From IMG/VR virus record IMGVR_UViG_3300024520_000055, positions 19,448-83,447 of that record: DNA of 64,000 nucleotides. The stretch is one strand, 5' to 3'. Below are positions 26,225 through 57,400 of this stretch, in pieces. This DNA comes from a virus. The notes under the pieces were generated by a model. The model did no database searches. It was not told where the DNA came from and saw only the letters and a program-made list of their open reading frames with translations. Made by a program: the position numbers and the translations under genes. Every line of letters begins with the position of its first letter. Position 1 is the stretch's first letter.

Positions 26225-27316
26225 TTACTGACTTGCTTCCTGGACCGCAGCCTCGACGGGAGATACCTCCACGTCTGCATACACCCCAGCCGCCCAGGCC
26301 ACGACAGCCTCGTGCAGCTTCTCTTGCAGGGGTGCAATCTTCTCCGGTGACACCTGCGCCCAATAGCGGAGCTTACCCTCCAGCACAGTGAGCAGATGCT
26401 CGGCATCACGGCACTTGGCTCTTGCGAACTGGCTGTCCGGCCCGAGGGTCAGACAGTTGGTGACGATCGCTCGCAGACGCCGATAAACATCAGACGGGAT
26501 ATTGGGATGCTCCGCGGTGGAGATGCCCAACACCCGTTGCGGTTTGCCCGGGCGCTGGAAGCGCGTCTTCTTGGCGTTGATGCGATAGCCCGCCTTCTTG
26601 TACCTCTTTCGAACCAGCCTTTCCATTGCGTCGGCGTCTTCACGCGAGATGTCGTGCGGCGTCGAGAGGTAGACGTTGTCCGAATACCTGGAGTACGTCC
26701 ACTCACCTTCAGAGAACTCATCGCGCAGCGTCTTCAGAAGAGGTTGGTCGATCTTCCAATCCACCACCGCGTTGCACACCGCACCCGAGGCCGGGGAGCC
26801 CTGGGGGACGATGTAGCGACTGCCCCAGGAGAACGTGTGTGGGACGGTAACGAGGCTGGAAAGCAGGGACGCCACGTCCGACGAGTATCCCAGGTAATCA
26901 CGGAACATGTCCTTGACGGGCCCCTGCCGCGTCGAGGTGAAGAAGTCCTTGATGTCCAGGTGCAGAATGAGCTTCTTCTTGACGTGATCAGGCGGCGTTT
27001 CCAGCACACCCCGACCAGGAACGTAGGCAGCAACGTGCGTCCCGAACGGGATCGGTTTCAGGAAGCGCGCATAGAGCACTTTCTGAATGCGTTTGAGACG
27101 CATGTCCGGGGCGTGGATCAGGCGCTTCCCTCCCGAGAACTTCGGGATGGTGAAGACCTTGTAGAGCTTGCCGCGATCGACAATCAGCCACCACATGGTC
27201 TTTGCCTTGATCCCCAGTGCGCAGGACAGGTCGAAGTCATTGAGGATCGGGGGCAACCCGAACGCGGGGGCTTTGGGGAGGAAGAATCCTTCGACGCTTG
27301 TATTGCGGAATGGCAT
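26225..27316 (-). CDS. Reverse transcriptase (retron/unknown-group type) with YSDN box
   Basis: 363 residues; ATG shares a base with the preceding TAA. RT motifs in order: F-T-I-P-K-F-S-G-G-K-R-L-I-H-A-P near residue 54 (fingers), L-H-L-D-I-K-D-F-F-T-S near 122 (motif A Asp), P-Q-G-S-P-A-S-G-A-V-C-N near 171, R-Y-S-D-N-V-Y-L-S near 212 (the YxDD box, second Asp replaced by Asn), then G-Y-R-I-N-A-K-K-T-R-F and Q-R-V-L-G-I-S (palm and primer grip). No maturase/X or endonuclease domain, so it is not a group II intron enzyme. It best resembles retron or chromosomal 'unknown group' RTs. No DGR template/variable repeat pair was seen nearby. Confidence 0.8.
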   Translation of the reverse strand: MPFRNTSVEGFFLPKAPAFGLPPILNDFDLSCALGIKAKTMWWLIVDRGKLYKVFTIPKFSGGKRLIHAPDMRLKRIQKVLYARFLKPIPFGTHVAAYVPGRGVLETPPDHVKKKLILHLDIKDFFTSTRQGPVKDMFRDYLGYSSDVASLLSSLVTVPHTFSWGSRYIVPQGSPASGAVCNAVVDWKIDQPLLKTLRDEFSEGEWTYSRYSDNVYLSTPHDISREDADAMERLVRKRYKKAGYRINAKKTRFQRPGKPQRVLGISTAEHPNIPSDVYRRLRAIVTNCLTLGPDSQFARAKCRDAEHLLTVLEGKLRYWAQVSPEKIAPLQEKLHEAVVAWAAGVYADVEVSPVEAAVQEASQ

Positions 27317-28116
27317 TAGATGTCCTCCACGTTGACGATCTTGCGCTCGCCCCCGCCTGTCTCGATAACGATTTCACCGAGGTCTTCCAGGTCTTCCGTC
27401 CCCGCCTCTTTCTGCCGTGCGGCTGCGTCTGCCTCGAATTCGTCGGCACCCTTCTTGTAGTCACCGTCGGTATCCGGCTTCGTGCAGAGGAACTCGTAGC
27501 AGTCGATGTCCCCAAAGACGCACTGCTTCATCAGACGTTGGAGCTGTCGAGGACAGATGGAACACGGAGACCCAATGGGTCCTTCCAACTGACCAAGCAG
27601 GAAAACATCTTCAGTCAGGTCGGCGTAGCGCGGCGCGTCCTTGTCATTTGAGATCTTGCGGTCGCTACTGTTGGACCAGAAGCGACTGACCAGATACTGA
27701 AGGACACCCCGGTTCTTCTGAACGCGAGGACGATACTCGGTAGGCTCGTCGTCCACCCGGTCCTGGGACTTCCGCTGCTCCTTCATCCAGAAGCTCGTAT
27801 CCCAGGTGGAGTTTGGGCGGTTACGAACGGCGATGGGGACCATGATCATCCATGGGCCGTTCTTCTGCATGTAGGCACAGATGGCAGCGAACTCTTCCTT
27901 GATCCCCGAGAGGGCAGTGAGCATTACTTGGGCGTTTCGGCATGAGGCACTGAGGCACAAGGCGTATCGCCAGTACCTCATCATGTCGTCACGGAGGTCT
28001 TCCGGAACAACATAGAAACGTTCGAACGGGATCTTGTGGACGTGCTTGCGCCCAACCTTGATCTCCGCTACGCCCCCACGATGGAGGGCGTCCAGGGCGG
28101 TTAGTGCCTTACTCAT
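27316..28116 (-). CDS. Hypothetical protein between VWA and RT genes
   Basis: 266 residues; start overlaps the VWA gene stop (TGATG) and its own stop overlaps the RT start, so the three are translationally coupled. The N-terminus looks like a small winged-helix or beta domain (V-A-E-I-K-V-G-R-K-H-V-H-K-I-P-F), residues 45-100 are helical, and a Cys cluster near 185-210 (P-C-S-I-C-P-R-Q ... Q-C-V-F-G-D-I-D-C-Y-E-F-L-C) could bind a metal. The C-terminus is acidic. No family recognised; coupling suggests it acts with the RT or the VWA protein. Confidence 0.55.
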   Translation of the reverse strand: MSKALTALDALHRGGVAEIKVGRKHVHKIPFERFYVVPEDLRDDMMRYWRYALCLSASCRNAQVMLTALSGIKEEFAAICAYMQKNGPWMIMVPIAVRNRPNSTWDTSFWMKEQRKSQDRVDDEPTEYRPRVQKNRGVLQYLVSRFWSNSSDRKISNDKDAPRYADLTEDVFLLGQLEGPIGSPCSICPRQLQRLMKQCVFGDIDCYEFLCTKPDTDGDYKKGADEFEADAAARQKEAGTEDLEDLGEIVIETGGGERKIVNVEDI

Positions 28117-29684
28117 CAGATGTACTTCCCCATGTGCAAAACGGTCCCGGGGAGTCCGGGATCACTTCCGTTAGGTGAAATGAGCCAGAACAACGGGACC
28201 TCTAGCGGGTTGGTGGGCACAGAAGCCCCTCCGTCTGTATAGTACACGACCACATCGGGTTTGAGCTCGACAGCCTTCCGCAGTGCCGGGAGGAATGCCG
28301 TCCCGCCGCGTCCGTGGATGCGGAAAGAGTCGGTAAACTGGGGTTCGATCTTGTCGTCTTTTACCAGGTAAACTCCGTCCTCGCGCACGTCCGCATCGCA
28401 CTCGATGACCCAAAGCTGCACGTCAATGTCGTGGCGCTTGCACAATGCGATGATCTCGGCGATGGCCTCCTCGAGTTCGGGCGTCGACATTGACCCGCTC
28501 GTGTCAATGATGAACACGAGCTTGTATCGAAGCGCGCGCTCCGTGCCCGGGTAGGGCAAGATCCGATACCGCCAGAACATAGGCCACCTGCGAACCTTGG
28601 GACGGATCATCGACTCGTTGATCTTGTTGCTCATCATCGAGCTGATGGCGGGGGACAGGATATCCTGCCACGGCACTCTCGTGTCGCGGAGCCAGATCTC
28701 GAGGTCCTCCTCCATGCCGCCCATCCCGGATCCGCACGCCCGGAGGTGGTCCTTGACGGCCCTTCGGAAGAGCTTCCGCATCTGTCGCCGTATTTCGTGG
28801 GCTGCGCCTTCCCTCTCGCCTCCCGTCATTGCCCCCGCGTCGTCAACGAAGAAGTGATACGAGAGGACGTACTTCCGCATACGGAAAGCAAGGTCGCGGT
28901 AGACCTGGGGGACGCCGTCGGGGATTTTCTCTCCGTCTTGTGTCAGGAACTCTACCTTGTCCGGGGGCGCACCCTTTTGTGGGGTGCTCATGTTCACGGT
29001 GCCGATCAAAGGAGTGATGTTGGGCGGTGCGATGCCTCCCTCGGGCGGTTCTGCGGACCAGTCCACAGGACCCCCAAAGCGCTTCAGCAACTTCTCTGCG
29101 ATTTGCTCGTCGAGAAGCATCTCCTGGTAGTACTCGTAGTCCTTCAGGTCGTCGAGGTCGGCATGCTCCGGGAGCACTGTCTCGATTCGGTGCGCACCAG
29201 TTCCCAGAATTCCGTCCGCTGACAGGAAGCCCTTACTACGCAAATACGAATTGTCGGCCATGTCCATGGCCAGGTTGGCGGTCAGATTGAAAATGTAGCG
29301 CATAGAATCGTCGATCGCGGCCATCTTGCGCATGTCCAGGAACCGGGGGATGTGGTCGTGCAGCAGGTGGACGAACTCGTGGTGCACCACGAAGAGGACT
29401 TCGGAGAGCGTGAGGTGCGCGAGTCTCTCGGGGTCGAGAAGAAGGCACACACGGCTCTCCTGCACCGCAATCGCGCCTGCGTACCCGAGACCGGGCACCA
29501 TTCTCTTGTTGATCTGACTGAGCACCCGAGCGACGAAGCTGCGTGCTGCGTCCACGTGGCTCTGCACGAAGAAGCCGAGGATGTCATCCAGCCCATACCG
29601 ATCCCCAATGGGATCGTCGGGATTTATCCCCCGGCCCAGTGTGGGGTCGAAGACTTGCTGCTTGGCACCAGTATTTGCTACCAT
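28116..29684 (-). CDS. DUF2201-type protein: metallopeptidase-like plus VWA domain
   Basis: About 522 residues from the ATG at 29684; in-frame ATGs at 29696 and 29723 and a GTG further up are possible, but they approach or overlap the divergent gene at 29712. The N-terminal part carries H-H-E-F-V-H-L-L-H-D-H near residue 103 (HExxH zinc peptidase signature). The C-terminal part carries a VWA MIDAS motif D-T-S-G-S-M-S near 395, with later conserved Thr (G-R-G-G-T-A) and Asp (Y-Y-T-D-G). This layout is DUF2201, usually paired with a MoxR-type AAA+ ATPase; such an ATPase is encoded at 32807-34063. The pair is thought to remodel or assemble protein or metal complexes; the target in a phage is unknown. 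Confidence 0.75.
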   Translation of the reverse strand: MVANTGAKQQVFDPTLGRGINPDDPIGDRYGLDDILGFFVQSHVDAARSFVARVLSQINKRMVPGLGYAGAIAVQESRVCLLLDPERLAHLTLSEVLFVVHHEFVHLLHDHIPRFLDMRKMAAIDDSMRYIFNLTANLAMDMADNSYLRSKGFLSADGILGTGAHRIETVLPEHADLDDLKDYEYYQEMLLDEQIAEKLLKRFGGPVDWSAEPPEGGIAPPNITPLIGTVNMSTPQKGAPPDKVEFLTQDGEKIPDGVPQVYRDLAFRMRKYVLSYHFFVDDAGAMTGGEREGAAHEIRRQMRKLFRRAVKDHLRACGSGMGGMEEDLEIWLRDTRVPWQDILSPAISSMMSNKINESMIRPKVRRWPMFWRYRILPYPGTERALRYKLVFIIDTSGSMSTPELEEAIAEIIALCKRHDIDVQLWVIECDADVREDGVYLVKDDKIEPQFTDSFRIHGRGGTAFLPALRKAVELKPDVVVYYTDGGASVPTNPLEVPLFWLISPNGSDPGLPGTVLHMGKYI

Positions 29685-30714: not shown

Positions 30715-30933
30715 CCTGCTTTCTAAGCGCTTTTCACCTTGAACGGGCCTGGAGCCTGCTTTCTTAGAGAGGCCATGATCGTAGTGGCGTAGCCAAGCGC
30801 AGCGCCTACGATCATGGATTCCTGTCCCGCTTTCTCGGGGTCCACTCCTCCGCCGACGGCTACGTCGACGGCTGCCTCGTAGAGGGAAGGCATTGCCAAC
30901 GTATCGCTGGCTACCACTAAGGTACAAAGCAGG
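30715..30933 (+). ncRNA. Structured RNA locus 1, unit A with two upstream satellites
   Basis: Core unit A: 5' strand GCTTT (30829-30833) followed by CTCGGGG, hairpin GCCAAC-GTATC-GCTGGC (30895-30911), adjacent hairpin TACC-ACTAA-GGTA (30912-30924), single C, then closing AAAGC (30926-30930). Two satellites precede it, each starting with CCTGCTTTCT (30715, 30755); CCTGCTTT is the exact complement of the tail AAAGCAGG (8 bp), a better match than the core's own strand. Satellite 2 contains a perfect 12-bp stem (30773-30784 with 30806-30817). Stop codons in all frames and the covariation with other units argue for RNA. Plus orientation is assumed from the consensus; transcription is not shown. 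Confidence 0.6.
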
Positions 30934-30943
30934 AAAAGGAAAA

Positions 30944-31296
30944 CCTGTTTTCTTGGAGACCCGCGAGGCAAGAGGCGCAGCCTGTGCCGTGTCGGGGTAT
31001 TTGGCCGTTGCTTTCTAGGGAGGCGTGTTATTCCCAGAGACGACGCAGGAGGGTCGGGAATGACACGTTCTTGGACCTTGCTTTCTACGGGGCTTGGGAT
31101 CCGCAGTGCTGTGTGGACCGAAGGGAACTCACAGCGGCGAGGATCCGAGCCTCTGGCGCGTTGCTTTCTGCGAGGTGATACGGGACGTACGGACTCCTGT
31201 CCCGCCTGCTTTCTCAGGGGCCTCCCAGTCGGCGACAAGGTGTCGAGAGTCAATGCTCGCGTATCGCGAGCTACCCGTCAGGGTACAAAGCAAGCG
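30944..31296 (+). ncRNA. Structured RNA locus 1, unit B with four upstream satellites
   Basis: Core unit B: CCTGCTTT (31205-31212), CTCAGGGG, hairpin CGACA-AGG-TGTCG (31233-31245), hairpin GCTCGC-GTATC-GCGAGC (31255-31271), directly adjacent TACCC-GTCA-GGGTA (31272-31285), single C, tail AAAGCA (31287-31292). Satellites begin at 30944 (CCTGTTTTCT), 31007 (GTTGCTTTCT), 31076 (CTTGCTTTCT) and 31158 (CGTTGCTTTCT); TTGCTTT pairs with the tail AAAGCAA. Each satellite holds its own hairpin, for example an 11-bp stem with one wobble (31025-31035 with 31056-31066) and CGGGAC/GTCCCG (31181-31186 with 31199-31204). Confidence 0.6.
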
Positions 31297-31304
31297 AATA
31301 TGGA

Positions 31305-31417
31305 AACGTCTCCTTAGGGAGGGTCCGCCGAGGCGGCCAGCCCCAGTTCGAGCTGAGTACGTAGTCTCAGGGTACTGCGTCCGCGTAACGCGGACTTCCC
31401 AAACGGGACGAGACGTT
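31305..31417 (+). ncRNA. Structured RNA locus 1, unit C
   Basis: Single unit without satellites. P1 is AACGTCTC (31305-31312) with GAGACGTT (31410-31417), 8 bp and unrelated in sequence to the CTTT-type P1 of units A and B. After the 5' strand comes CTTAGGGAGG. The 3' part has GTCCGC-GTAAC-GCGGAC (31379-31395), TCCC-AAAC-GGGA (31397-31408), then the invariant single C before P1. The tail is followed by GAAAACTGG, a 3' flank shared with other units (AAAACT-type). Confidence 0.65.
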
Positions 31418-31428
31418 GAAAACTGGAG

Positions 31429-31554
31429 TCCACTTCCTCAGGGTTAGTGCTCGAGCTCGTCGACACGGTCTCGAGGAGTACAGCTCCTCAGACCGGAACG
31501 AAGTCCCGAACTCTGTGTTGGCGTATCACCAACTGCCAAGTGGCACGAAGTGGA
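31429..31554 (+). ncRNA. Structured RNA locus 1, unit D
   Basis: P1 is TCCACTTC (31429-31436) with GAAGTGGA (31547-31554), 8 bp. CTCAGGG follows the 5' strand. A central nested stem (CGGTCT/AGACCG enclosing GAGGAG/CTCCTC) fills the middle. The 3' part has GTTGGC-GTATC-ACCAAC (31517-31533; one C-A mismatch next to the loop), TGCC-AAGT-GGCA (31534-31545), then the single C and P1. The switch from a CCGC to a TTGG stem around the same GTANC loop is a compensatory change. Confidence 0.65.
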
Positions 31555-31561
31555 AAAGCGA

Positions 31562-31706
31562 TGTCTATCTTCTCGGGGTTGGCGCCGGCCGGCGCCGGGC
31601 GAGCTCGAGCTGAGCGCACCTCTTCCGAGCCGCAAGGCGAGGAAGAGGTTCTCTCAAGGGGCAACGTCCGCGTAGCGCGGACATCCCTTACGGGATCAAG
31701 ATAGAC
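31562..31706 (+). ncRNA. Structured RNA locus 1, unit E
   Basis: P1 is GTCTATCTT (31563-31571) with AAGATAGAC (31698-31706), 9 bp. CTCGGGG follows (31572-31578). The middle holds a GC-rich 16-base palindrome and a stem CCTCTTCC/GGAAGAGG (31619-31626 with 31641-31648) capped by GCC-GCAA-GGC, a GNRA tetraloop. The 3' part has GTCCGC-GTAGC-GCGGAC (31666-31682), ATCCC-TTAC-GGGAT (31683-31696), single C, then P1. It ends 10 bases before the stop of the convergent HU-like gene. Confidence 0.65.
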
Positions 31707-31716
31707 GTAAAAACTT

Positions 31717-31992
31717 TCAGGCACGGATTTGTGCTTTCAATCGAGACGAGGCACTGAACGCGACCTGGGGGGTTGGTCGCAGGCGTCTCACTGCACCACT
31801 CTGGACGTCCCGAATCTTTCTCGCCTTGCGCGTGAAGATAGAGAACGATCCGAAAGACGGAATGCGAACACCTTTCTCTTTTACCAAACCGAGGGTCAGA
31901 ACCCTGAAGACGGCATCGACGGCAGCATTGGCCATGCTGATAGGGCAGTCCAATTCTTGAGCTACCATCCGGGCGACATCGGACTTGGTCAT
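31717..31992 (-). CDS. HU/IHF-family DNA-binding protein
   Basis: 91 residues from the ATG at 31992, behind a strong GGAGGAGG site; a longer frame to 32073 lacks such a site. The layout is that of HU: N-terminal M-T-K-S-D-V-A-R-M-V-A helix, second helix A-N-A-A-V-D-A-V-F, then V-R-I-P-S-F-G-S-F-S-I-F-T-R-K-A-R and a shortened arm. The Pro at the tip of the DNA-intercalating arm is not clear (R-K-I-R-D-V-Q-S-G). HU bends DNA and could help condense the phage chromosome or organise transcription. Its minus-strand promoter is at 32022-32050. Confidence 0.8.
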   Translation of the reverse strand: MTKSDVARMVAQELDCPISMANAAVDAVFRVLTLGLVKEKGVRIPSFGSFSIFTRKARKIRDVQSGAVRRLRPTPQVAFSASSRLKAQIRA

Positions 31993-32013
31993 CGCGCCCT
32001 CCTCCGGTATAAT
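31985..32013 (+). promoter_or_regulatory. Sigma-70-like promoter for the 32062 gene
   Basis: TTGGTC (31985-31990), 17 bases, TATAAT (32008-32013). The -10 is perfect and the spacing ideal. The -35 overlaps the first codons of the divergent HU-like gene. Transcription would start near 32020 and reach the ATG at 32062. This looks like a host-type promoter, so this gene is probably expressed early. Confidence 0.65.
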
Positions 32014-32021
32014 CTGGACGC

Positions 32022-32050
32022 ATTTTACGGGAACACCGCCCCGCGCGCAA
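32022..32050 (-). promoter_or_regulatory. Sigma-70-like promoter for the HU-like gene
   Basis: On the minus strand TTGCGC (plus 32045-32050), 17 bases, TAAAAT (plus 32022-32027), driving leftward transcription from about 32015 into the HU-like gene at 31992. It lies downstream of, and face to face with, the plus-strand promoter at 31985-32013, so the two transcripts overlap at their 5' ends. Confidence 0.55.
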
Positions 32051-32061
32051 CCGGAGAAACC

Positions 32062-32829
32062 ATGATCGAGCACGTTGGATACGCCAAACAGATGTCGTTC
32101 CTGGCGCAGGGGGCAAAGGCAGCGCGCGACGCACCTGAAGAAGAGTGGAACAAGCGCGCGGCCAAAGAGTTGCTAGCGAAAGAAGACGCGCAACTGCTCC
32201 CCGTCGTCGTTGCGTCCCTGACCCTTCTCGGGACCGAGATCGCAACGTGGGAACCCGAAAGCATCTGGCTGGAGTACAAAGACAAAGCCGGAGGCGAGTT
32301 GCCCCCGATCAATCGGGAGAAGATTCTGGCTTCCCTCGCCATGACGCTGAACCCCGTCTTCTTCTGGGACCACCGCGCATTCCAGAACATCGTTTCGGTG
32401 GCCAACGGTGAGCCCAGCCAGCCGGACACATTGCAGGAGCCGACGCCTGCGGAGCTTTTGTGGGGCGCTGCGATCGGCGAGGCTGTCTGGAAAAGCGTTC
32501 ACTCCGAAGCACCCCCGTGGGGCGATGAGATCCAACGGTTCGCCGCCGTTGTCCTTTTCCGCGGGGGTCTCCAGGTGGCCCCAACACCGTTAGCGTGGTG
32601 CCAGGACCACCTGGACATGCTCTTTCGGAACTCACAGGGGCCCAGCCAGGACAAGCTGGAGGCGGAGTGGAGCAAACTTGACCAGAGCAGGCTCCCCGAC
32701 CACAAGTTCGAGGAGACTCCGGTTGATGTCCAACTCCATACTCTCGCGACCATGTTCCTGTACGCGCAATCGCAAGCCACGCAGACAGCCAACCAGCTCC
32801 TGAAACTCAGGAATGATCATTCGCGTTGA
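32062..32829 (+). CDS. Hypothetical early protein
   Basis: 255 residues from the ATG at 32062 (GGAG six bases upstream); the open frame extends left to 31729 but that part is antisense to the HU-like gene. Mostly helical with Trp-rich segments (E-E-E-W-N-K-R, I-W-L-E-Y-K-D, P-V-F-F-W-D-H-R-A-F). No signal peptide, membrane span or catalytic motif. It has its own sigma-70-like promoter and its 3' end overlaps the convergent MoxR gene by 23 bases. Small, early, single-gene units in phages are often host-takeover or anti-defence factors; that is only a guess here. Confidence 0.6.
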   Translation: MIEHVGYAKQMSFLAQGAKAARDAPEEEWNKRAAKELLAKEDAQLLPVVVASLTLLGTEIATWEPESIWLEYKDKAGGELPPINREKILASLAMTLNPVFFWDHRAFQNIVSVANGEPSQPDTLQEPTPAELLWGAAIGEAVWKSVHSEAPPWGDEIQRFAAVVLFRGGLQVAPTPLAWCQDHLDMLFRNSQGPSQDKLEAEWSKLDQSRLPDHKFEETPVDVQLHTLATMFLYAQSQATQTANQLLKLRNDHSR

Positions 32830-34063
32830 AGTCGTCCCGCATCCGAGAGAGCCCGGAAAGCAGGGACCGCGACGCGTTCTTGAAGCTCGGGTTCGAGAAC
32901 ATCGCCTGCCCGACCTTTTCCATGTAGGTCTTGTACTCTTCCTCCTCGCCCGGTTCGGCGCGGAGCTTGCGAAAGAACACCTGCATCAAGTCTCGCATCC
33001 CTGCGTTGCTCAGGTCGTCCATCAGCCGCGCGAGGGAAGGGACGATTTTCTGTGGGTCCGGGTAGGACCTCATTTGCAAGGCCACAGCGTGTAGAAGTTC
33101 AGAGATGACCGTGTGGTTCCCCTGCTCCATGTGGTACACGACCTTCCGGTGCACCTGGCTGCGGTCGTTTTCGTATTTGGCCAGAACCTCGGCGGGATCG
33201 ATGGAGCCCGAGTCCTTTTGGAGGTCCTCGACAACCTTCTCGGCGACGCCCATTCCCACCATTGACCCGAGAGTGGGTTCCAGGAGGGCCAGTTGTCTCC
33301 GCGAGAGGCCGCCAATGTTGTCCGTGTTCGCCTGCGCGATCAACGCCTTGAGAACATCGTCCACATCGTCCCACACGGCAGGACACCCATACGGGCCCTC
33401 GTGGTTGTCTCGCATTTTGACGTCGTGGATCACGGAGGGGTTGGACCGCAGGTGCTTCAGCAACGGGGGAAACATCTTCTTCCGTTTGGTCGCGTATTTG
33501 ATGTAGTCGTCTCCCGTCGGCTCGACCCAGAAGAAGCGCAGCCTGCGCCGCACTGCGGGATCTCGGAACTTGGGGCTGGCATCGTATAGCCCCGAAGCCG
33601 GGTTCATGGTCAGCGCAACGCACCAGTTGTCCGGAAGGACGAACTGCATGAACTTGCGCATCCGCGTATCCACGAGGCTGAAAATGTGCTTGAGGACACG
33701 GTCGTCACAACGACCAACGTCGTCCATGACCATGACGCCGGGCTCGGTGCTGTTCTGGATACTTTGGAGGAAGTCCGCGAGCACGGGGTGGAGTTGCGTC
33801 ATCTCCTGATCGGGAATCATCGTTCCCCATTCGGCCCCTTCGGTGAAGTTGGCCATGGGAACAACCTCGGCCCGCCACTTGAGTTCTTCCTCAATGTAGC
33901 GAACGGTTTCTGTTGTCTTCCCCACTCCCGAGTCCCCGATGAACAGCGGCACCTTCTTCTGTGGGCCGCACCACGAGGTCTCACAGTGGAAACCTATCTG
34001 ACCAACTGATATGATGGGGCACTGTAGACGGTCAACGAACTTGGCCTTGGGATCTCTGGCCAT
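32807..34063 (-). CDS. MoxR-type AAA+ ATPase
   Basis: 418 residues; ATG at 34063 with AAGGAG eight bases upstream. Walker A G-D-S-G-V-G-K-T-T near residue 44, Walker B G-V-M-V-M-D-D-V near 111, sensor-1-like A-L-T-M-N-P-A near 155, and an R-D-P-A-V-R-R-R-L arginine-finger-like stretch near 170. MoxR ATPases pair with VWA proteins (here 28116-29684) to remodel client complexes; in a phage this could serve assembly, polymerase loading or defence evasion. The helical C-terminal half (from about 250) is not assigned. It starts 14 bases from the divergent terminase gene. Confidence 0.8.
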   Translation of the reverse strand: MARDPKAKFVDRLQCPIISVGQIGFHCETSWCGPQKKVPLFIGDSGVGKTTETVRYIEEELKWRAEVVPMANFTEGAEWGTMIPDQEMTQLHPVLADFLQSIQNSTEPGVMVMDDVGRCDDRVLKHIFSLVDTRMRKFMQFVLPDNWCVALTMNPASGLYDASPKFRDPAVRRRLRFFWVEPTGDDYIKYATKRKKMFPPLLKHLRSNPSVIHDVKMRDNHEGPYGCPAVWDDVDDVLKALIAQANTDNIGGLSRRQLALLEPTLGSMVGMGVAEKVVEDLQKDSGSIDPAEVLAKYENDRSQVHRKVVYHMEQGNHTVISELLHAVALQMRSYPDPQKIVPSLARLMDDLSNAGMRDLMQVFFRKLRAEPGEEEEYKTYMEKVGQAMFSNPSFKNASRSLLSGLSRMRDDFNANDHS

Positions 34064-34077
34064 GTTGGAGGCTCCTT

Positions 34078-35745
34078 TTGGGTGCTCCCAGTAAAAACCC
34101 GATCGAAGTTCGGCGCTCCGAGTTTACCGAGAAAGCCCTGCGCCTTGAAGGGCGCCCGTTCAGTTTTAAGGGGTACGAACTCTTCATCCCTATCTACGAT
34201 TCCCACGCTGATGAAACTCATCTGATGACGGGGCGCCAAGTCGCGAAATCCACAACGTGCGCCAACTTCAGTCTCGCCGAAACCGCGATCATTCCTTTCT
34301 TCAAGATCCTTTACACCTCACCGACCCGCGAGCAGACTCGCAAGTTCTCCACCACCAGGGTGGGGAAGACCATGGCGCACTCTCCGGAGTATCGCAACCT
34401 GTACGTCCATCCTGAGCTGTCGCAAAACGTGCTCCAGAAAATCATGCGTAACGGATCGGAGTTGCACTTCACCTACGCCGCCGACGACCCCGACCGGGCC
34501 CGCGGAATCTCTGCCGACAGGCTCCTCGCAGACGAGACCCAGGATGTGCATTACGACGCAGTCATCCCGGTCCTCCGTGAGTGTCTGTCCGCCTCGAAGT
34601 ACGCTTACATCACCACTGCTGGGACTCCGAAGACCATGGAGAACTCAATGGAGTTCCTGTGGCGGAGGTCAACGCAGCACGAGTGGGGTCTGCGCTGCCC
34701 CGGGTGTTCGAAGATCAACTTCATTATCGATGAGAAGTCGATCGGCCTGAAAGGTCCTATCTGCAAATACTGTGGGCACCTGCTCGACGTGGTTCCGAAC
34801 TACCACCCGCGCTTCGACAAGCGGAATGGCTTCTGGGTACCTGCCAACCCAGACAAGGATAGACAGGGCTTCCATATCCCGCAGCCGGTGCTGTCTCTCC
34901 ACGCCAACGACCCGAAAAAGTGGAGGATGCTCCTTTCCAAAATGCCCGACGGGGACGCGGGATACTCCCTTTCGCGGTTCAAGAACGAGGTCCTGGGCGT
35001 CTCCGACGCTTTGGGCAAGCGTATGATCACGCGCGATCATCTCATCTCACTGTGCGACGCCAATGAGACGTTCGCGTCACCTCCAAATAAGGGGTGGAAC
35101 AAGGGAATCAGCAACATCGCCGCAGGGATCGACTGGGGAGGTGGTAGCGTTATCAAGAAGGGCACCTTGTCCGACATGGACGTCGTCTCCCGTACGGTGC
35201 TGTGGATCTGGGGGATGTGGAAGGGGCGTGCGTACAAATGTCTCTTCTACAAAGTGTTCCCCGCGGACCACCCCATCCACGACATCGCGGAGATCATCCA
35301 CTACCTGAAAGAGTTCAACGTTGAGATGGTTTATGGCGACGCGGGCGAAGGACACGTTGCCAACAGCATGATCCAGGAAGCCCTCGGACCGGGGCGTCTC
35401 TACCAATGCCAGTATGGTTTCCACAAGAAACCGCTCACCTGGAATGCACACGATCGCTACCTGTTGGACCGCACCACCATCATCGACTGCTTCTTCCTCC
35501 AGCGCGTTCTAAAAAAGAGGGTGGTCTTCGCCAACAAACAGCAGATGACTGCGGCGTTTGATGACTTCCTCGCCGAGTATGAGGAGGTCACCATGGACGG
35601 AACGGGGCGCCGCGTGTGGCGGCATGCCCCGGCCGAGCCCGATGACGCGTTGCATGCAGCTATCTTTGGCTGGCTCGCAATGATGAGCCTGACCACAGAC
35701 TACAACGACATCGCCGCTTTCGACACGTCCCTGATTACGCAGTAA
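34078..35745 (+). CDS. Terminase large subunit
   Basis: 555 residues from a TTG at 34078 with GGAGG seven bases upstream; no earlier ATG is available. Packaging ATPase motifs: Walker A-like G-R-Q-V-A-K-S-T near residue 52, Walker B L-L-A-D-E-T-Q-D near 149, and a T-T-A-G-T-P coupling motif near 180. Nuclease (RNase H-like): G-I-D-W-G-G-G near 350, V-Y-G-D-A-G-E-G near 420, and P-D-D-A-L-H-A near 523. A four-Cys zinc site (C-P-G-C at about 207, C-K-Y-C at about 228) is inserted between ATPase and nuclease. TerL cuts concatemers and pumps DNA through the portal (51644-53437, far away here). RNA locus 2 starts at its stop codon. Confidence 0.9.
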   Translation: MGAPSKNPIEVRRSEFTEKALRLEGRPFSFKGYELFIPIYDSHADETHLMTGRQVAKSTTCANFSLAETAIIPFFKILYTSPTREQTRKFSTTRVGKTMAHSPEYRNLYVHPELSQNVLQKIMRNGSELHFTYAADDPDRARGISADRLLADETQDVHYDAVIPVLRECLSASKYAYITTAGTPKTMENSMEFLWRRSTQHEWGLRCPGCSKINFIIDEKSIGLKGPICKYCGHLLDVVPNYHPRFDKRNGFWVPANPDKDRQGFHIPQPVLSLHANDPKKWRMLLSKMPDGDAGYSLSRFKNEVLGVSDALGKRMITRDHLISLCDANETFASPPNKGWNKGISNIAAGIDWGGGSVIKKGTLSDMDVVSRTVLWIWGMWKGRAYKCLFYKVFPADHPIHDIAEIIHYLKEFNVEMVYGDAGEGHVANSMIQEALGPGRLYQCQYGFHKKPLTWNAHDRYLLDRTTIIDCFFLQRVLKKRVVFANKQQMTAAFDDFLAEYEEVTMDGTGRRVWRHAPAEPDDALHAAIFGWLAMMSLTTDYNDIAAFDTSLITQ

Positions 35746-36550
35746 ATCGCCTTCTCTTGGAGTCCCAGCGGAGTCGCGTGGACCTCCCGTCAGGGACGGT
35801 GGACGCGGCTCCGCTGGGATCTTGTCGCCTTCTCTTCGCGTCAGCCGGACTGACGTCCCAACGGGCGCAGCCTCGTTGGGACAGATGGTCCGGGGGACCT
35901 TGTCGCCTTCTCTCAATGTCCACGACGTGCTCGGCGTGCCGTGAGCTCGTCGTAGGAATCTGTCGCCCTTTTCGAAGTGTGCGCCGTGGGCGTCGCTCTC
36001 GAGCGACGCACGCGTTTGCATCCTGGCCCTTTTCTTGGTGTGCCAGAAGAACCAGGTCCGGGTGCAGCCCGGAACCAGGTCTTCGGATACCTGTGCCCTT
36101 TTCTACGTGGTAGCAAGGCTGGCCGACCGTAGGGAGCTCTTCTTGCTGACACCTGTCGCCCTTTTCTACGGCGGCAGTCCGAGAGGAGCTCGAAGCCCTG
36201 CTTCCTTGGTACAAGGAAGAGGGGAAGCTGAGCTCCTCCAGGACGGCGGTCTGGCCCTTTTCTGGGCGCTCTGGATCGGGCCGCCACGAGCTGGTCGGGC
36301 GTTTCCGCCCAGCGTGGTGGCGGCCGGATACAGGGGTGCGGCCCTTTTCTACGAAGGCAAGGTCTCTCACTGTGTGAGACCTGGCGTTCTGGCCCCTTTC
36401 TTGAAGGCCTCGTCTCGTGAGCTCGTGGAACGAAGTGTAAGGAGCTGCGGGAGACGGGGACATTCTGGAACCCCTTTCTGGGCGTGTAGAGCCTGAGCAC
36501 AGTCGTTGCTTGCGTATCGCAAGCTGCCTCGGGTCAAGGCGCAAAAGGGC
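35746..36550 (+). ncRNA. Structured RNA locus 2, unit K with ten upstream satellites
   Basis: Core unit K ends the train: CCCTTT (within 36472-36479) and CTGGGCG, GCTTGC-GTATC-GCAAGC (36508-36524), GCCT/AGGC hairpin (36526-36540), then the tail AAAAGGGC (36543-36550) followed by AAACTT. Ten satellites precede it at about 35746, 35824, 35902, 35962, 36024, 36092, 36154, 36251, 36338 and 36389, spaced about 40-100 bases. Each opens with a (C)GCCTTCTC- or GCCCTTTTC-type strand and then a strong hairpin, for example 11 perfect bp (35763-35773 with 35809-35819) and 9 perfect bp (35855-35863 with 35874-35882). GCCCTTTT pairs perfectly with the tail; the first three satellites instead match the tail of the next unit (AGAAGGCG). 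Confidence 0.6.
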
Positions 36551-36970
36551 AAACTTTTCTCGGTGGCGCGGAAACGAGTCGTGAGTCGAAGACGAAACGA
36601 ATCGTCACCGGCACGAGGACCTTCTCTCAACGTCGCCAGGCGTCCCCTCCGTCCCAGGATGGGACAAGGAGGGGTCCAGTGGGGAGGTTGGACAATCACC
36701 TTCTCTTGGCGAACTCACGGCGGCGTTCGAGCGCGCCAGGGTACGCAGTACCCAGCGAGACGACGCCGGATCCGGCTTTCTTACTGCACACGACCGAAGC
36801 AGGGGCGACCCTGGCAGGGAGTGGGCTGTCAGAAAGACGGGTGTTGCCTGACGAGGTATGCCTTCTCTCAGGGGACGCATCCGCGACCAGGCTGTCGAAG
36901 ACTAAGAACAACGATTCTGGCGATCCATGTGCGCGTAACGCGCACTACCACAACAGTGGTACAGAAGGCG
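36550..36970 (+). ncRNA. Structured RNA locus 2, unit H with four upstream satellites
   Basis: Core unit H: GCCTTCT (36860-36866), CTCAGGGG (36867-36874), GTGCGC-GTAAC-GCGCAC (36929-36945), TACCAC-AACA-GTGGTA (36946-36961), single C, tail AGAAGGC (36963-36969), flank GAAAG. Satellites start near 36550, 36618, 36696 and 36774. Their hairpins include nested CCCCTCC/GGAGGGG around GTCCCA-GGA-TGGGAC (36644-36674) and GGGTAC-GCA-GTACCC (36739-36753). The fourth satellite (CTTTCT at 36777) also finds its own partner AGAAAG at 36831-36836. Confidence 0.6.
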
Positions 36971-36982
36971 AAAGTATCTGGG

Positions 36983-37249
36983 TTAACCTTTTTCTCAGGG
37001 GAGGGAGCACGTGATCCGGATAAACCATACGCTCGAGGTCCTCCGGCGGAAGGGCGCCAGGTCGAGGTGACGGGATCGGAGCTCCCGGACCCCGCGGCAC
37101 GTCGACCTGCCGAAACCAGCCCCACGCGGGCTGGGGCGCAACACGACGCTCGTATCACGAGGCAGGTCGACGGTGCCCAGCGGCAATGTCCGCGTAACGC
37201 GGACGGCTCGCACGCATGCTGCAAATGCTTGCAAGCGCAAAAAGGTTAA
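36983..37249 (+). ncRNA. Structured RNA locus 2, unit F (longest P1)
   Basis: The largest unit. P1 is TTAACCTTTTT (36983-36993) with AAAAAGGTTAA (37239-37249), 11 perfect bp. CTCAGGGG follows at 36994-37001. A long central arm pairs 37100-37111 with 37161-37172 (12 perfect bp, plus 3 beyond a bulge) and carries CCAGCCC/GGGCTGG (37116-37122 with 37128-37134). The conserved hairpin GTCCGC-GTAAC-GCGGAC is at 37188-37204. The hairpin that should follow is longer and less regular here, but a single C still precedes P1. The AAACTG flank is present after the tail. Confidence 0.65.
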
Positions 37250-37269
37250 ACTGTATTTATATCGGTCTG

Positions 37270-37388
37270 GCTCTTTCTCGGGGGACCTCCCCGTGGCCAT
37301 CAAGCTGCTCGTCTTGATGGCCGCGCGGTTGTAGCTACCGCACCTCGTTGCGTGCGTAGCGCACGCTCGCAGTATTGCGACAAAGAGC
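37270..37388 (+). ncRNA. Structured RNA locus 2, unit G
   Basis: P1 is GCTCTTT (37270-37276) with AAAGAGC (37382-37388). CTCGGGGG follows the 5' strand. A 10-bp perfect stem (37295-37304 with 37313-37322) and a short hairpin fill the middle. The 3' part has CGTGC-GTAGC-GCACG (37351-37365), TCGCA-GTAT-TGCGA (37367-37380), single C at 37381, then P1 and the flank TAAACTGG. The tail overlaps the stop codon of the convergent Hfq-like gene. Confidence 0.65.
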
Positions 37389-54423: not shown

Positions 54424-57400
54424 ATGAGCGACGGAATCTACCCAATCCTGGCGCGTCCCAAAGAACGCCAGGAACGAATCAGAGAGCAGGCCCTTGCAGG
54501 CCTTCGTGACGTGTTCCCGATGCAACTTGATCGGCACACGCTCGAACTCGAGGACGCCCAGCTGAAAGAGCAATCATTCAGCCCCTCCCAGCAAAAGAAA
54601 GCCATCTTGAGTGGGGGGAACCTTTTCGAATCCGTCCAGGCCAAGCTGGCATTGCGCAACGCCGACGGAAAGGTCGTTGATCGCATCAAGACCAACGTGC
54701 TGCACCTTCCGTATCTGACACCACGCGGCACGTTCGTCGTCAAGGGCACCGAATACGAGATCCCGAACCAGCTCCGGTTTCGCCCCGGAGTCTACACGCG
54801 ACACCGCGTCAACGGAGACCTGGAAGCCTGGTTCAACCGCTCGCGGGGAGCAAATTTCCGCGTTGCAATGGACCCCTCCACGAGCCATTTCGGCATGGAG
54901 CTCGGTGCCACGCGCATTCCGCTCTACCCCGTGCTGAAGGGGCTAGGCATCCCAGACAAGGAAATCCAGAACCAGTGGGGGAAGGAAATCCTGTCCCAGA
55001 ACCAGGACTGGGCCGGAAGCGACAAGGCGGTAAACACCGCCATCGGACGCCTCTACAAAAAGCTCACGCCAGCCCACGCACAGACTGCGAAATCCTTGGA
55101 GCAGCGACAAGCCGCAATCCGCGAGCACCTGTCAATGGACTCTCTGGACTCTGAAGTAATGCGCACGACACTGGGGACTCCTACGCGCACAGCAGATCCT
55201 GCCACGGTACTCCAGGCCTCTGGGAAGCTCCTCCGCGTTTTCAAGGGAGAGGCCGAGCCGGACGACAGAACTAGCACGCCATTCTTGAGCATCCACAGCG
55301 CGGATGACTTCTTCCGCGAGCGCATGAATCTCGACGCGCGTGCTTTACGTCGTAAACTCGCGATGAAGCTGCGACACAAAGGCACCTCTCTCGACAAGGT
55401 CGTGCCCCCCGGAATGTTCACCCGGGGCCTGCGCAACTTCATCACGACATCCGCGCTTTCGGCCAACCCCACGCAGATCAATCCGATCGAGATGATCGAC
55501 CACGCCAGCAAGATCACGTTCCTGGGTGAAGGTGGAATCGCAGACGATCGGGCCGTCCCGCCTGAGACACGTCGCGTACATTGGTCCCAGGTCGGAATCA
55601 TCGACCCCATCCGAACACCCGAGAGCTTCAACATCGGGATCGACGTTCGTGCTGCGGTCCGGGCAGGGCGTGACCAGGACGGACGTCTCTACGCTCGCCT
55701 GCTGGACGATCGAGGAAACCAAACCTGGGTTCCGGCAACGGCGCTCCCAGGGAAGAACATCGCATTCCCCAACCAACCGGACCGTGGTCGCGTCGACGTG
55801 TTGAACACCGGGGAGATCCGCCGAGTGCCTGTAGCTCAGGTCGATTACCGTGTCCCCTCGGGGGCACATTTGCATGGGGTCGCCTCGAACCTCGTTCCGT
55901 TCGTTGAGAGTTCCCAAGGCAACCGGCTTCTGATGGGCGCCAAGATGGCGACACAGGCCGTTCCCCTTGTCGAGCGCGAAGTGCCACTCATCCAGGTCGG
56001 AGAGCGCAGAGAGGATCGTTCTTTCGAAGACCAGTTCGGGCGCATGGTAGTCCCCACGTCTCCTGTGGAGGGCCGCGTTGCCAAGATTGACAAGGACTTC
56101 ATCTACATTCGGCCTGCGCGGGTGAAGAAAGCAGCCTACATCGAAAAGCGTGCCTGGGGAGTCGTCAAGTACCGCCAATTCAAACACATCCGCATCGCCA
56201 TCGAGAACCCCAAAGACTCAACGCGCTCCGGCGTGGATACAGACGGCCACAAGTGGTCGCAGAAAATGAGAGACGACTACGGTTACATCCCCGGAACAAC
56301 CACGTCTGCCGACAAAGAAGGGCTGGACGCTTTCGTAGGAACAGATCTTTCGTCCACGCACGTATTCGTCATTCACCAGCTTGACGGGCACGGGGACTTC
56401 GATGAGCTGAAGGTGATGATCGGGTACCCGAACGAGCGGACGGCGAAGGCGCACTATCTGCACAACTACGACAAGACCTGGGGCGAGCATCGCATCAAGC
56501 AGATCGACAAGTTTACAAACGAGGAGTTCCGTGACCGCTACATCCCGGAGTTCAAGAAGGCGGCGGCGTCGCAGCGGGATCTGATCCGTGTTCCCTACGA
56601 CACGAATTTCCCGCTCTCCTCGAAGACGTTCCTCCAAAACGATCTCTCTGTGAAGGTGGGAGACAAGGTCAAAGCGCGGCAGCCCCTGGCCGAGTCCAAT
56701 TTCACTCGGGGAAGCACCCTGGCTCTTGGCAAGAATCTGGACGTCGGCTACATGCCCTACCGCGGCCTGAACTCCAACGACGCCGTCGTGGTGTCTGAAG
56801 GCGCCGCGAAAAAGATGACGTCGAGCCACATGTATCAGAAGCGGTACTTGCCCGACGTCGACTCCATTCCCGGGCGCAAGCTGCACGAAACATACTTTGG
56901 GAACAAGTACACCAAGGACCAGTACAAGAACTTGAACTCCAAGGGCGTTGCGCGGCCGGGTAGTCTCGTGGTGCATGGTGACCCCATCATCGTAGGGGTA
57001 CGCAAAACAAAGCCCACGGCGGAAGCACAGATCCTGGGGCGCTTCCACAAGTCCCTGGTGAAGCCCTACGCTGAGGAAGCGATCACCTGGGACCACGAGG
57101 AGCCTGGAGAAATCATCGACGTTGTGCAGCAGCCCAATGGGCGCACCGCTGTCACAGTGAAGATGAATGCTCCGGTCCAAATCGGTGACAAGCTCTCCAA
57201 TCGCTACGGGGGCAAGGGCGTCGTTTCCGCCATCATCCCCAATGAACAGATGGTGCGGCGCCCTGACGGCAAGCCAGTGGATCTTCTGTGGTCGGGACCA
57301 GTGCTGATCAGTCGCATCAATCCTGCCCAGATCATCGAGACGGCCGCCGCCAAGGTCGCCAAGAAGCTGGGCAAGCCCATTCGCGTTCGCCCCTATGCTG

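What the first reader, a model, noticed from the sequence alone, without database searches (positions are those of the whole stretch)
30715..37388. Undescribed structured RNA family: nine covarying copies in two phage loci
Nine units (A, B, C, D, E at 30.7-31.7 kb; K, H, F, G at 35.7-37.4 kb) share one plan: P1 5' strand, CTCRGGGG or a close variant, variable arms, a hairpin with GTANC loop, a second hairpin directly adjacent, a single C, P1 3' strand, then an A-rich flank (often AAAC). P1 sequences are unrelated between copies yet complementary: AACGTCTC/GAGACGTT, TCCACTTC/GAAGTGGA, GTCTATCTT/AAGATAGAC, TTAACCTTTTT/AAAAAGGTTAA, GCTCTTT/AAAGAGC, GCCTTCT/AGAAGGC. The GTANC stem also changes in compensating pairs (GTCCGC/GCGGAC, GCTCGC/GCGAGC, GCTTGC/GCAAGC, GTGCGC/GCGCAC). 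This is seen directly and is strong evidence for a conserved fold. I cannot match it to a known ncRNA, riboswitch or ribozyme class.
Basis: seen in the sequence. Interest (0 to 1): 0.93.

Follow-up and report, generated by a model that had tools for sequence, protein, structure and literature searches.

The report
Phage retron RNA arrays, many templates
The nine structured RNAs are the template RNAs of a retron (a bacterial reverse-transcription element best known as an anti-phage defence), here built into the core genome of a family of viruses that infect microbes and, unusually, laid out so that one priming domain is followed by up to eight or nine alternative template cassettes.

Summary
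All nine units fold as described and covary, but they are encoded on the MINUS strand. Read that way each unit is a1 - single G - hairpin - 7-bp hairpin with a G-NNN-C triloop - variable stem(s) - AG - a2, the layout of a retron msr-msd RNA (priming G directly after a1). A retron-clade reverse transcriptase lies at 26225-27316(-) (retron RTs fill the top 18 PDB fold matches). The same RNA plan recurs next to TerL in most of a phage family that carries this RT: with the nucleotide after a1 left free, 31 of 31 detected units have G (1 antisense hit), and 30 of 33 have AG before a2. TerL relatives at about 30% identity, most without the RT, lack it. The surprise is the arrays: single a1/msr modules are followed by several msd-a2 cassettes (K about 8, H 6, B 5, A 3; nine in one relative, four in two others). 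Nothing like this turned up in Rfam or the papers searched. The closest precedent found is Retron-Nex1, with duplicated msr/msd (PMC6868368). Synthesis of msDNA and the biological role are untested.

The parts
30715..31706 (-). Array 1: msr-msd units E, D, C, B, A in 5'-3' order on the minus strand; 11 a2 copies in all
35749..37388 (-). Array 2: units G, F, H with K nested inside H; 16 a2 copies in all
   Evidence: conserved in L002:2178-3583
31563..31706 (-). Unit E: a1 31698-31706 GTCTATCTT, triloop hairpin 31666-31682, a2 31563-31571
31429..31554 (-). Unit D: a1 31547-31554 TCCACTTC, triloop hairpin 31517-31533, a2 31429-31436
31305..31417 (-). Unit C: a1 31410-31417 AACGTCTC, triloop hairpin 31379-31395, a2 31305-31312
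30944..31294 (-). Unit B with 5 msd-a2 cassettes: a1 31287-31294 CTTGCTTT, triloop hairpin 31255-31271; a2 at 31205-31212, 31160-31167, 31077-31084, 31007-31014, 30944-30951 (last one imperfect)
30715..30933 (-). Unit A with 3 msd-a2 cassettes: a1 30926-30933 CCTGCTTT, triloop hairpin 30895-30911; a2 at 30826-30833, 30755-30762, 30715-30722
37270..37388 (-). Unit G: a1 37382-37388 GCTCTTT, triloop hairpin 37350-37366, a2 37270-37276
36983..37249 (-). Unit F: a1 37239-37249 TTAACCTTTTT, triloop hairpin 37188-37204, a2 36983-36993
35749..36969 (-). Unit H with 6 msd-a2 cassettes: a1 36963-36969 GCCTTCT, triloop hairpin 36929-36945; a2 at 36860-36866, 36698-36704, 36619-36625 and, beyond the nested unit K, 35905-35911, 35827-35833, 35749-35755
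35965..36550 (-). Unit K nested in H, about 8 msd-a2 cassettes: a1 36543-36550 GCCCTTTT, triloop hairpin 36508-36524; a2 at 36470-36477, 36392-36399, 36341-36348, 36254-36261, 36158-36165, 36095-36102, 36026-36033 and 35965-35972 (the last preceded by CG instead of AG)
   Evidence: last copy read
26225..27316 (-). Retron-clade reverse transcriptase, 363 aa; active-site motif reads YSDN here (YxDD in relatives)
27316..28116 (-). pX, 266 aa, cysteine-rich partner whose stop overlaps the RT start; conserved C-x2-C...C-x2-G-x3-C; no Pfam family
28116..29330 (-). VWA/metallopeptidase-like protein (DUF2201), next gene 5' of pX; true start approximate
32807..34063 (-). MoxR-like AAA ATPase, part of the conserved block
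34078..35745 (+). Terminase large subunit, marker of the phage family, convergent with array 2

Best explanation
The two loci are arrays of retron template RNAs (msr-msd), transcribed from the minus strand and served by the retron-clade reverse transcriptase of the same gene block. In each unit the RT binds the short msr hairpins (the invariant 7-bp hairpin with a G-NNN-C triloop is the likely recognition element), the a1 strand pairs with an a2 strand, and the unpaired G directly after a1 primes DNA synthesis on the template that ends ...AG just before a2. Where one a1 is followed by several msd-a2 cassettes, each a2 can pair with the same a1, so one priming domain can launch copying of several different stem-loop templates and give a mixed pool of branched RNA-DNA (msDNA) molecules. 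Shown here: the fold and its strand, the invariant G and AG, retention of a2 sequences against diverging templates, and linkage to the RT. Inferred: that the RT uses these RNAs, 2'-5' priming, and alternative use of the a2 copies. Role, most likely guess: because RT, pX and arrays sit in the conserved PolA-TerL-RT core block, the msDNA pool serves the phage itself, for example as decoy or ligand acting on a host defence or DNA-repair factor (probability about 0.35; other phage-serving or phage-competition roles share the rest).
For: RT: best matches are retron profiles (NCBIfam retron_St85 1e-43; PADLOC RT_XIII 1.5e-58); the AlphaFold model (pLDDT 90.9) has retron RTs as its top 18 PDB fold matches, Ec86 first. 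RNA: a1-G-hairpin-triloop hairpin-...-AG-a2 on the RT strand; 18 sense, 0 antisense, 0 shuffled hits in 22 RT-clade regions. With the nucleotide after a1 and the closing pair left free, 31/31 have G and 31/31 G-C closing; AG before a2 in 30/33 with the tag left free. Covariation. Linkage: PolA-(array site)-TerL-MoxR-p453-VWA-pX-RT in the same order in all 23 RT loci, TerL present in all 22 records; no such RNA just past TerL in 38 relatives at about 30% TerL identity. Arrays: window cassette table; other phages with one a1 and 4, 4 and 9 a2 copies. Window a2 copies pair fully with their own a1 (at most with G.U) in 24 of 27 while templates have diverged (51-80% identity in the cassettes aligned). 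Two E. coli retron RTs bind their own msr, one through an 8-bp stem with a three-base loop (PMC6868368).
Against: No expression or msDNA data. RT and RNAs are not one contiguous cassette: array 1 starts 3.4 kb and array 2 8.4 kb from the RT, with oppositely transcribed genes between. The window's own RT has YSDN where relatives have YxDD, so this copy may be weak or inactive. Motifs deviate from textbook retrons (x-A-x-x-H or TPPDH for NAXXH; xLG for VTG; no AGC around the priming G in the window units). P1 is 7-11 bp, at the short end of known retrons. Models R1 and R2 do not significantly recover bacterial type XIII msr sequences, so that link rests on resemblance. Several RT-clade phages (G018, G019) have no array next to TerL and none was found elsewhere.
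Confidence: 0.8

Rival explanations
1. Retron RNAs as above, but only one a2 per a1 is used; the additional a2 copies are by-products of cassette duplication or recombination and have no function.
For: Five of nine window units (C, D, E, F, G) work with a single a2; simple one-a2 units are common in relatives.
Against: Templates between the a2 copies are unrelated in sequence, so the copies are not recent duplications, yet 24 of 27 keep full pairing to their own a1 and array-specific sequence, also across the nested K-in-H arrangement and in L002. Multi-a2 arrays recur in other phages of the family.
Confidence: 0.2
2. One long reverse transcript: priming at the outermost a2 copies the whole run of cassettes into a single multi-hairpin DNA of 0.5-1 kb.
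For: All cassettes lie in one orientation on one presumptive transcript.
Against: Would not need every inner a2 to match a1; known retron transcripts stop at defined positions after a short msd (PMC6868368).
Confidence: 0.1
3. A structural or regulatory phage RNA unrelated to reverse transcription (giant ornate RNA, protein or RNA sponge), next to the RT by chance.
For: Rfam knows no match either way; size and repeated hairpins resemble large phage RNAs.
Against: Invariant G after a1 and AG before a2, strand always that of the RT, presence in the RT-bearing phages and absence in about 30% TerL relatives that mostly lack it.
Confidence: 0.06
4. A phage-borne defence retron used against competing phages, with pX as effector or trigger.
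For: Retrons of known function defend against phages; pX is translationally coupled to the RT.
Against: No recognisable toxin or effector domain; core syntenic position in the whole family is unusual for an accessory defence module; many templates are not needed for one sensor.
Confidence: 0.3

Closest known systems
Bacterial retrons (Ec86/Eco1 and others; review PMC6868368)
   Same: a1/a2 stem, unpaired priming G immediately after a1, msr hairpins including a short stem with a three-base loop, msd hairpin, retron-clade RT
   Different: RT not contiguous with the RNA; no AGC around the G in the window units; NAXXH and VTG altered; up to about eight msd-a2 cassettes per msr; core gene of a phage family
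Type XIII retrons of Planctomycetes, Myxococcota and others (PADLOC RT_XIII; L300, L311, L322, L338, L344)
   Same: Best RT profile of the phage clade; the ncRNA upstream of these RTs has a GGCG-NNN-CGCC hairpin with the same triloop type (GTTAC, GATAC) followed by GTTG(A); in L344 a1|G and AAG|a2 as in the phage
   Different: RT scores only 161-220 bits against 465-488 for bacterial members; phage partner pX lacks the CxC...CxH motif of the large protein beside several bacterial members; bacterial units examined look single, not arrayed
Retron-Nex1 (Ne160), as described in PMC6868368
   Same: Several duplicated msr and msd sequences with no RT within a kilobase
   Different: Reported as duplications of the msr and msd; the one-msr, many-msd layout is not described there
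Large phage RNAs (GOLLD, ROOL) and HEARO
   Same: Long, highly structured phage or mobile-element RNAs
   Different: No Rfam match at gathering threshold, and none of these families at relaxed thresholds

Membership tests
Retron | RT of the retron clade | tested here: met
Retron | a1/a2 stem with priming guanosine at or directly 3' of a1 | tested here: met
   31/31 G with that position left free; definition in PMC6868368
Retron | msr stem-loops followed by msd hairpin before a2 | tested here: met
Retron | Typical motifs NAXXH (region X) and VTG (region Y); deviating in some validated retrons | tested here: inconclusive
   x-A-x-x-H in several relatives, TPPDH in window; xLG in all examined
Retron | Compact contiguous msr-msd-RT cassette | tested here: not met
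   Same strand and same conserved block, but 3.4 and 8.4 kb apart; hence called a variant, not an ordinary member
Retron | msDNA with 2'-5' RNA-DNA branch | not testable with these tools
   needs experiment
Type XIII retron | RT of the XIII profile | tested here: inconclusive
   best profile but less than half the score of bacterial members
Type XIII retron | Large upstream protein with CxC...CxH motif (seen in several bacterial members) | tested here: not met
   phage pX is 200-270 aa with a different cysteine pattern
Any of 4227 Rfam families | covariance-model match at the curated threshold | tested here: not met
   relaxed searches searches gave only chance-level matches

The most novel reading that the evidence does not exclude
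A core, phage-serving retron system in a family of large uncultured phages in which one RT and a few priming domains are naturally multiplexed over dozens of fast-evolving template cassettes, making a pool of different msDNAs during infection: the natural counterpart of engineered retron arrays, and a case of a virus using a bacterial anti-virus element as part of its own life cycle.
Probability: 0.55. Interest if true: 0.93.

Novelty: new variant of a known kind. Interest (0 to 1): 0.87.

Why it matters
Retrons are studied as bacterial defences against phages and as single-template DNA writers. A phage family with a conserved retron RT and arrays in which one priming domain faces many templates would give a phage-side function for msDNA to test, a natural design for multiplexed retron editing, and new RT-msr pairs. 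It also gives a ready experimental question: which a2 copies are used, and in what order.

Tried and rejected
Plus-strand reading (rejected by A.C/G.U evidence and the strand-specific scans). G.U versus A.C counts over the variable arms were uninformative, which fits templates that must fold as RNA and as DNA but does not prove it. Recombineering-donor idea: the arms match nothing else in the 83-kb record. DGR or group II intron RT: those structures rank below all retron RTs. Array 1 as 5' leader of the RT operon: dropped, because a conserved opposite-strand gene (p453) lies between. TerL, PolA and RT single-sequence scans found one relative or none; alignments were needed. R1 and R2 did not significantly find type XIII msr; the one R2 match upstream of an RT (L315) had no a2. 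A simple ungapped search for a1/a2 in the bacterial ncRNAs worked cleanly only for L344. pX model is poor and matches nothing. Literature searches found no description of phage-core or multi-msd natural retrons; the library lacks most subscription journals, so this is weak evidence of absence.

Full report
Observation. Rfam has no match. On an alignment of eight window units and three from a close relative (L002, TerL 89% identical) 94.7% of cells pair, 26 cells are changed on both sides, and the covariation score is 0.564 against 0.183 +/- 0.033 in shuffles and <= 0.094 in slid registers. The relative keeps array 2 in the same place with the same nesting.

Strand. The imperfect triloop stems in A, D, F2 and G2 carry A.C on the plus strand, which are G.U pairs on minus. 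A scan that knows only geometry (a 6-nt a1 with a complementary a2 preceded by AG, a G after a1, a hairpin, a flush >=6-bp hairpin with a three-base loop) finds the window units on minus and none on plus. Whole-array folding energies are lower on plus, but both strands fold well, and the variable arms give no strand signal.

What it is. On the minus strand every unit reads a1 - G - hairpin - triloop hairpin - variable stems - AG - a2. In retrons the 5' and 3' ends of the msr-msd RNA pair over about 8-30 bases and the stem contains, or ends immediately before, the guanosine that primes reverse transcription; one retron RT (Ec86) binds an 8-bp msr stem with a three-base loop (PMC6868368). P1 here is 7-11 bp, at or just below that range.

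The RT. Window 26225-27316(-) matches retron RT profiles and solved retron RTs. Its AlphaFold model (mean pLDDT 90.9) ranks retron RTs 1-18 in the PDB, ahead of group II intron, DRT and DGR enzymes. An alignment-based search found 23 loci with 32-42% identical RTs, clearly apart from other retron RTs at about 27%. All 22 distinct records searched also hold a TerL 43-47% identical to the window's, and all 23 loci keep the order PolA - array site - TerL - MoxR - p453 - VWA - (pX) - RT (PolA is seen where the locus reaches it). This shows RT and phage core genes are inherited together.

The RNA travels with the RT. In the 1.7 kb next to the TerL 3' end, the scan gives 18 hits in RNA sense, 0 antisense and 0 in shuffles over the 22 RT-clade records. 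Leaving the nucleotide after a1 and the closing pair free, 31 of 31 detected units (family, window, L002, L011) have G and a G-C closing pair, with one antisense hit. Leaving the dinucleotide before a2 free, 30 of 33 are AG. Among TerL relatives, L011 and L015, which have the RT, carry a unit; the 38 loci from L017 on (about 30% identical) have none within 2.5 kb of TerL. A second model, R2, gave 9 matches in G006, 8 full-length sense-strand ones in G022 and 3 each in G004, G028 and G002; part of the G006, G022 and G028 matches are to training sequences or their copies. Two borderline matches appeared among twelve RT-negative records. G018 and G019 have the RT but no array at this site.

Arrays. 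In the window one a1 is followed by 8 (K), 6 (H), 5 (B) or 3 (A) a2 copies, the other five units by one; K is nested in H and the a2 type switches accordingly. Between copies the templates are unrelated, and orthologous cassettes of window and L002 are 51-80% identical while still pairing. Other family members show one a1 with 4 (G007, G008) and 9 (G010) a2 copies; in G010 eight of nine pair with a1 through one U.G. The retention of many a2 copies is the ground for the inference that they are used. It is an inference.

Bacterial relatives. The nearest cellular RTs are type XIII retrons (PADLOC). Several carry upstream a GGCG-NNN-CGCC hairpin with GTTAC or GATAC loops followed by GTTG(A), strongly resembling the phage hairpin; in L344 the junctions are a1|G and AAG|a2 over 13 bp. 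The models do not confirm the resemblance statistically, so homology of the msr is likely but not shown. One MAG contig labelled Archaeoglobales (L281) has the length of G011 and is probably the same virus record; the host is unknown.

Function. Not established. pX, 200-270 aa, cysteine-rich and overlapping the RT start in many members, is the obvious partner but matches nothing. The window's YSDN motif (relatives examined: YxDD) means experiments should start from a relative.

Verdict. A real and conserved structured RNA, misread in strand and class: a retron-type RNA linked to a retron-clade RT in a phage family, with a multi-template array layout for which I found no description.

Noticed in passing
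window 26225-27316 (-): RT active-site motif is YSDN in this record, YxDD in every family member examined.
   Followed up: partly
window 27316-28116 (-): pX, a cysteine-rich protein family of unknown fold whose gene overlaps the RT start (4 bp in many relatives); no Pfam, no PDB fold match.
   Followed up: partly
window 54424-59214 (+): Single-chain beta/beta-prime-like RNA polymerase (1596 aa) with a Pfam inorganic-pyrophosphatase domain match (PF18823) at residues 585-704.
   Followed up: no
window 28116-29330 and 32807-34063 (-): VWA protein and MoxR-like ATPase form a conserved pair in the same block in all 23 RT loci.
   Followed up: partly
L281: Contig QMZE01000001.1 of an 'Archaeoglobales' MAG (78,677 bp) has the same length as the IMG/VR record G011: a virus contig binned into an archaeal MAG, either mis-binned or a host hint.
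   Followed up: no
window array 2, just 3' of a2 copies (minus strand): Many a2 copies are followed by (G)ACAGG/ACAAG-like sequence (e.g. AAAAGGGCGACAGG, AGAAGGCGACAAG); possible processing or spacer element.
   Followed up: no
G018, G019 records: RT present but PolA and TerL ends directly adjacent, no array at that site; arrays may lie elsewhere.
   Followed up: no
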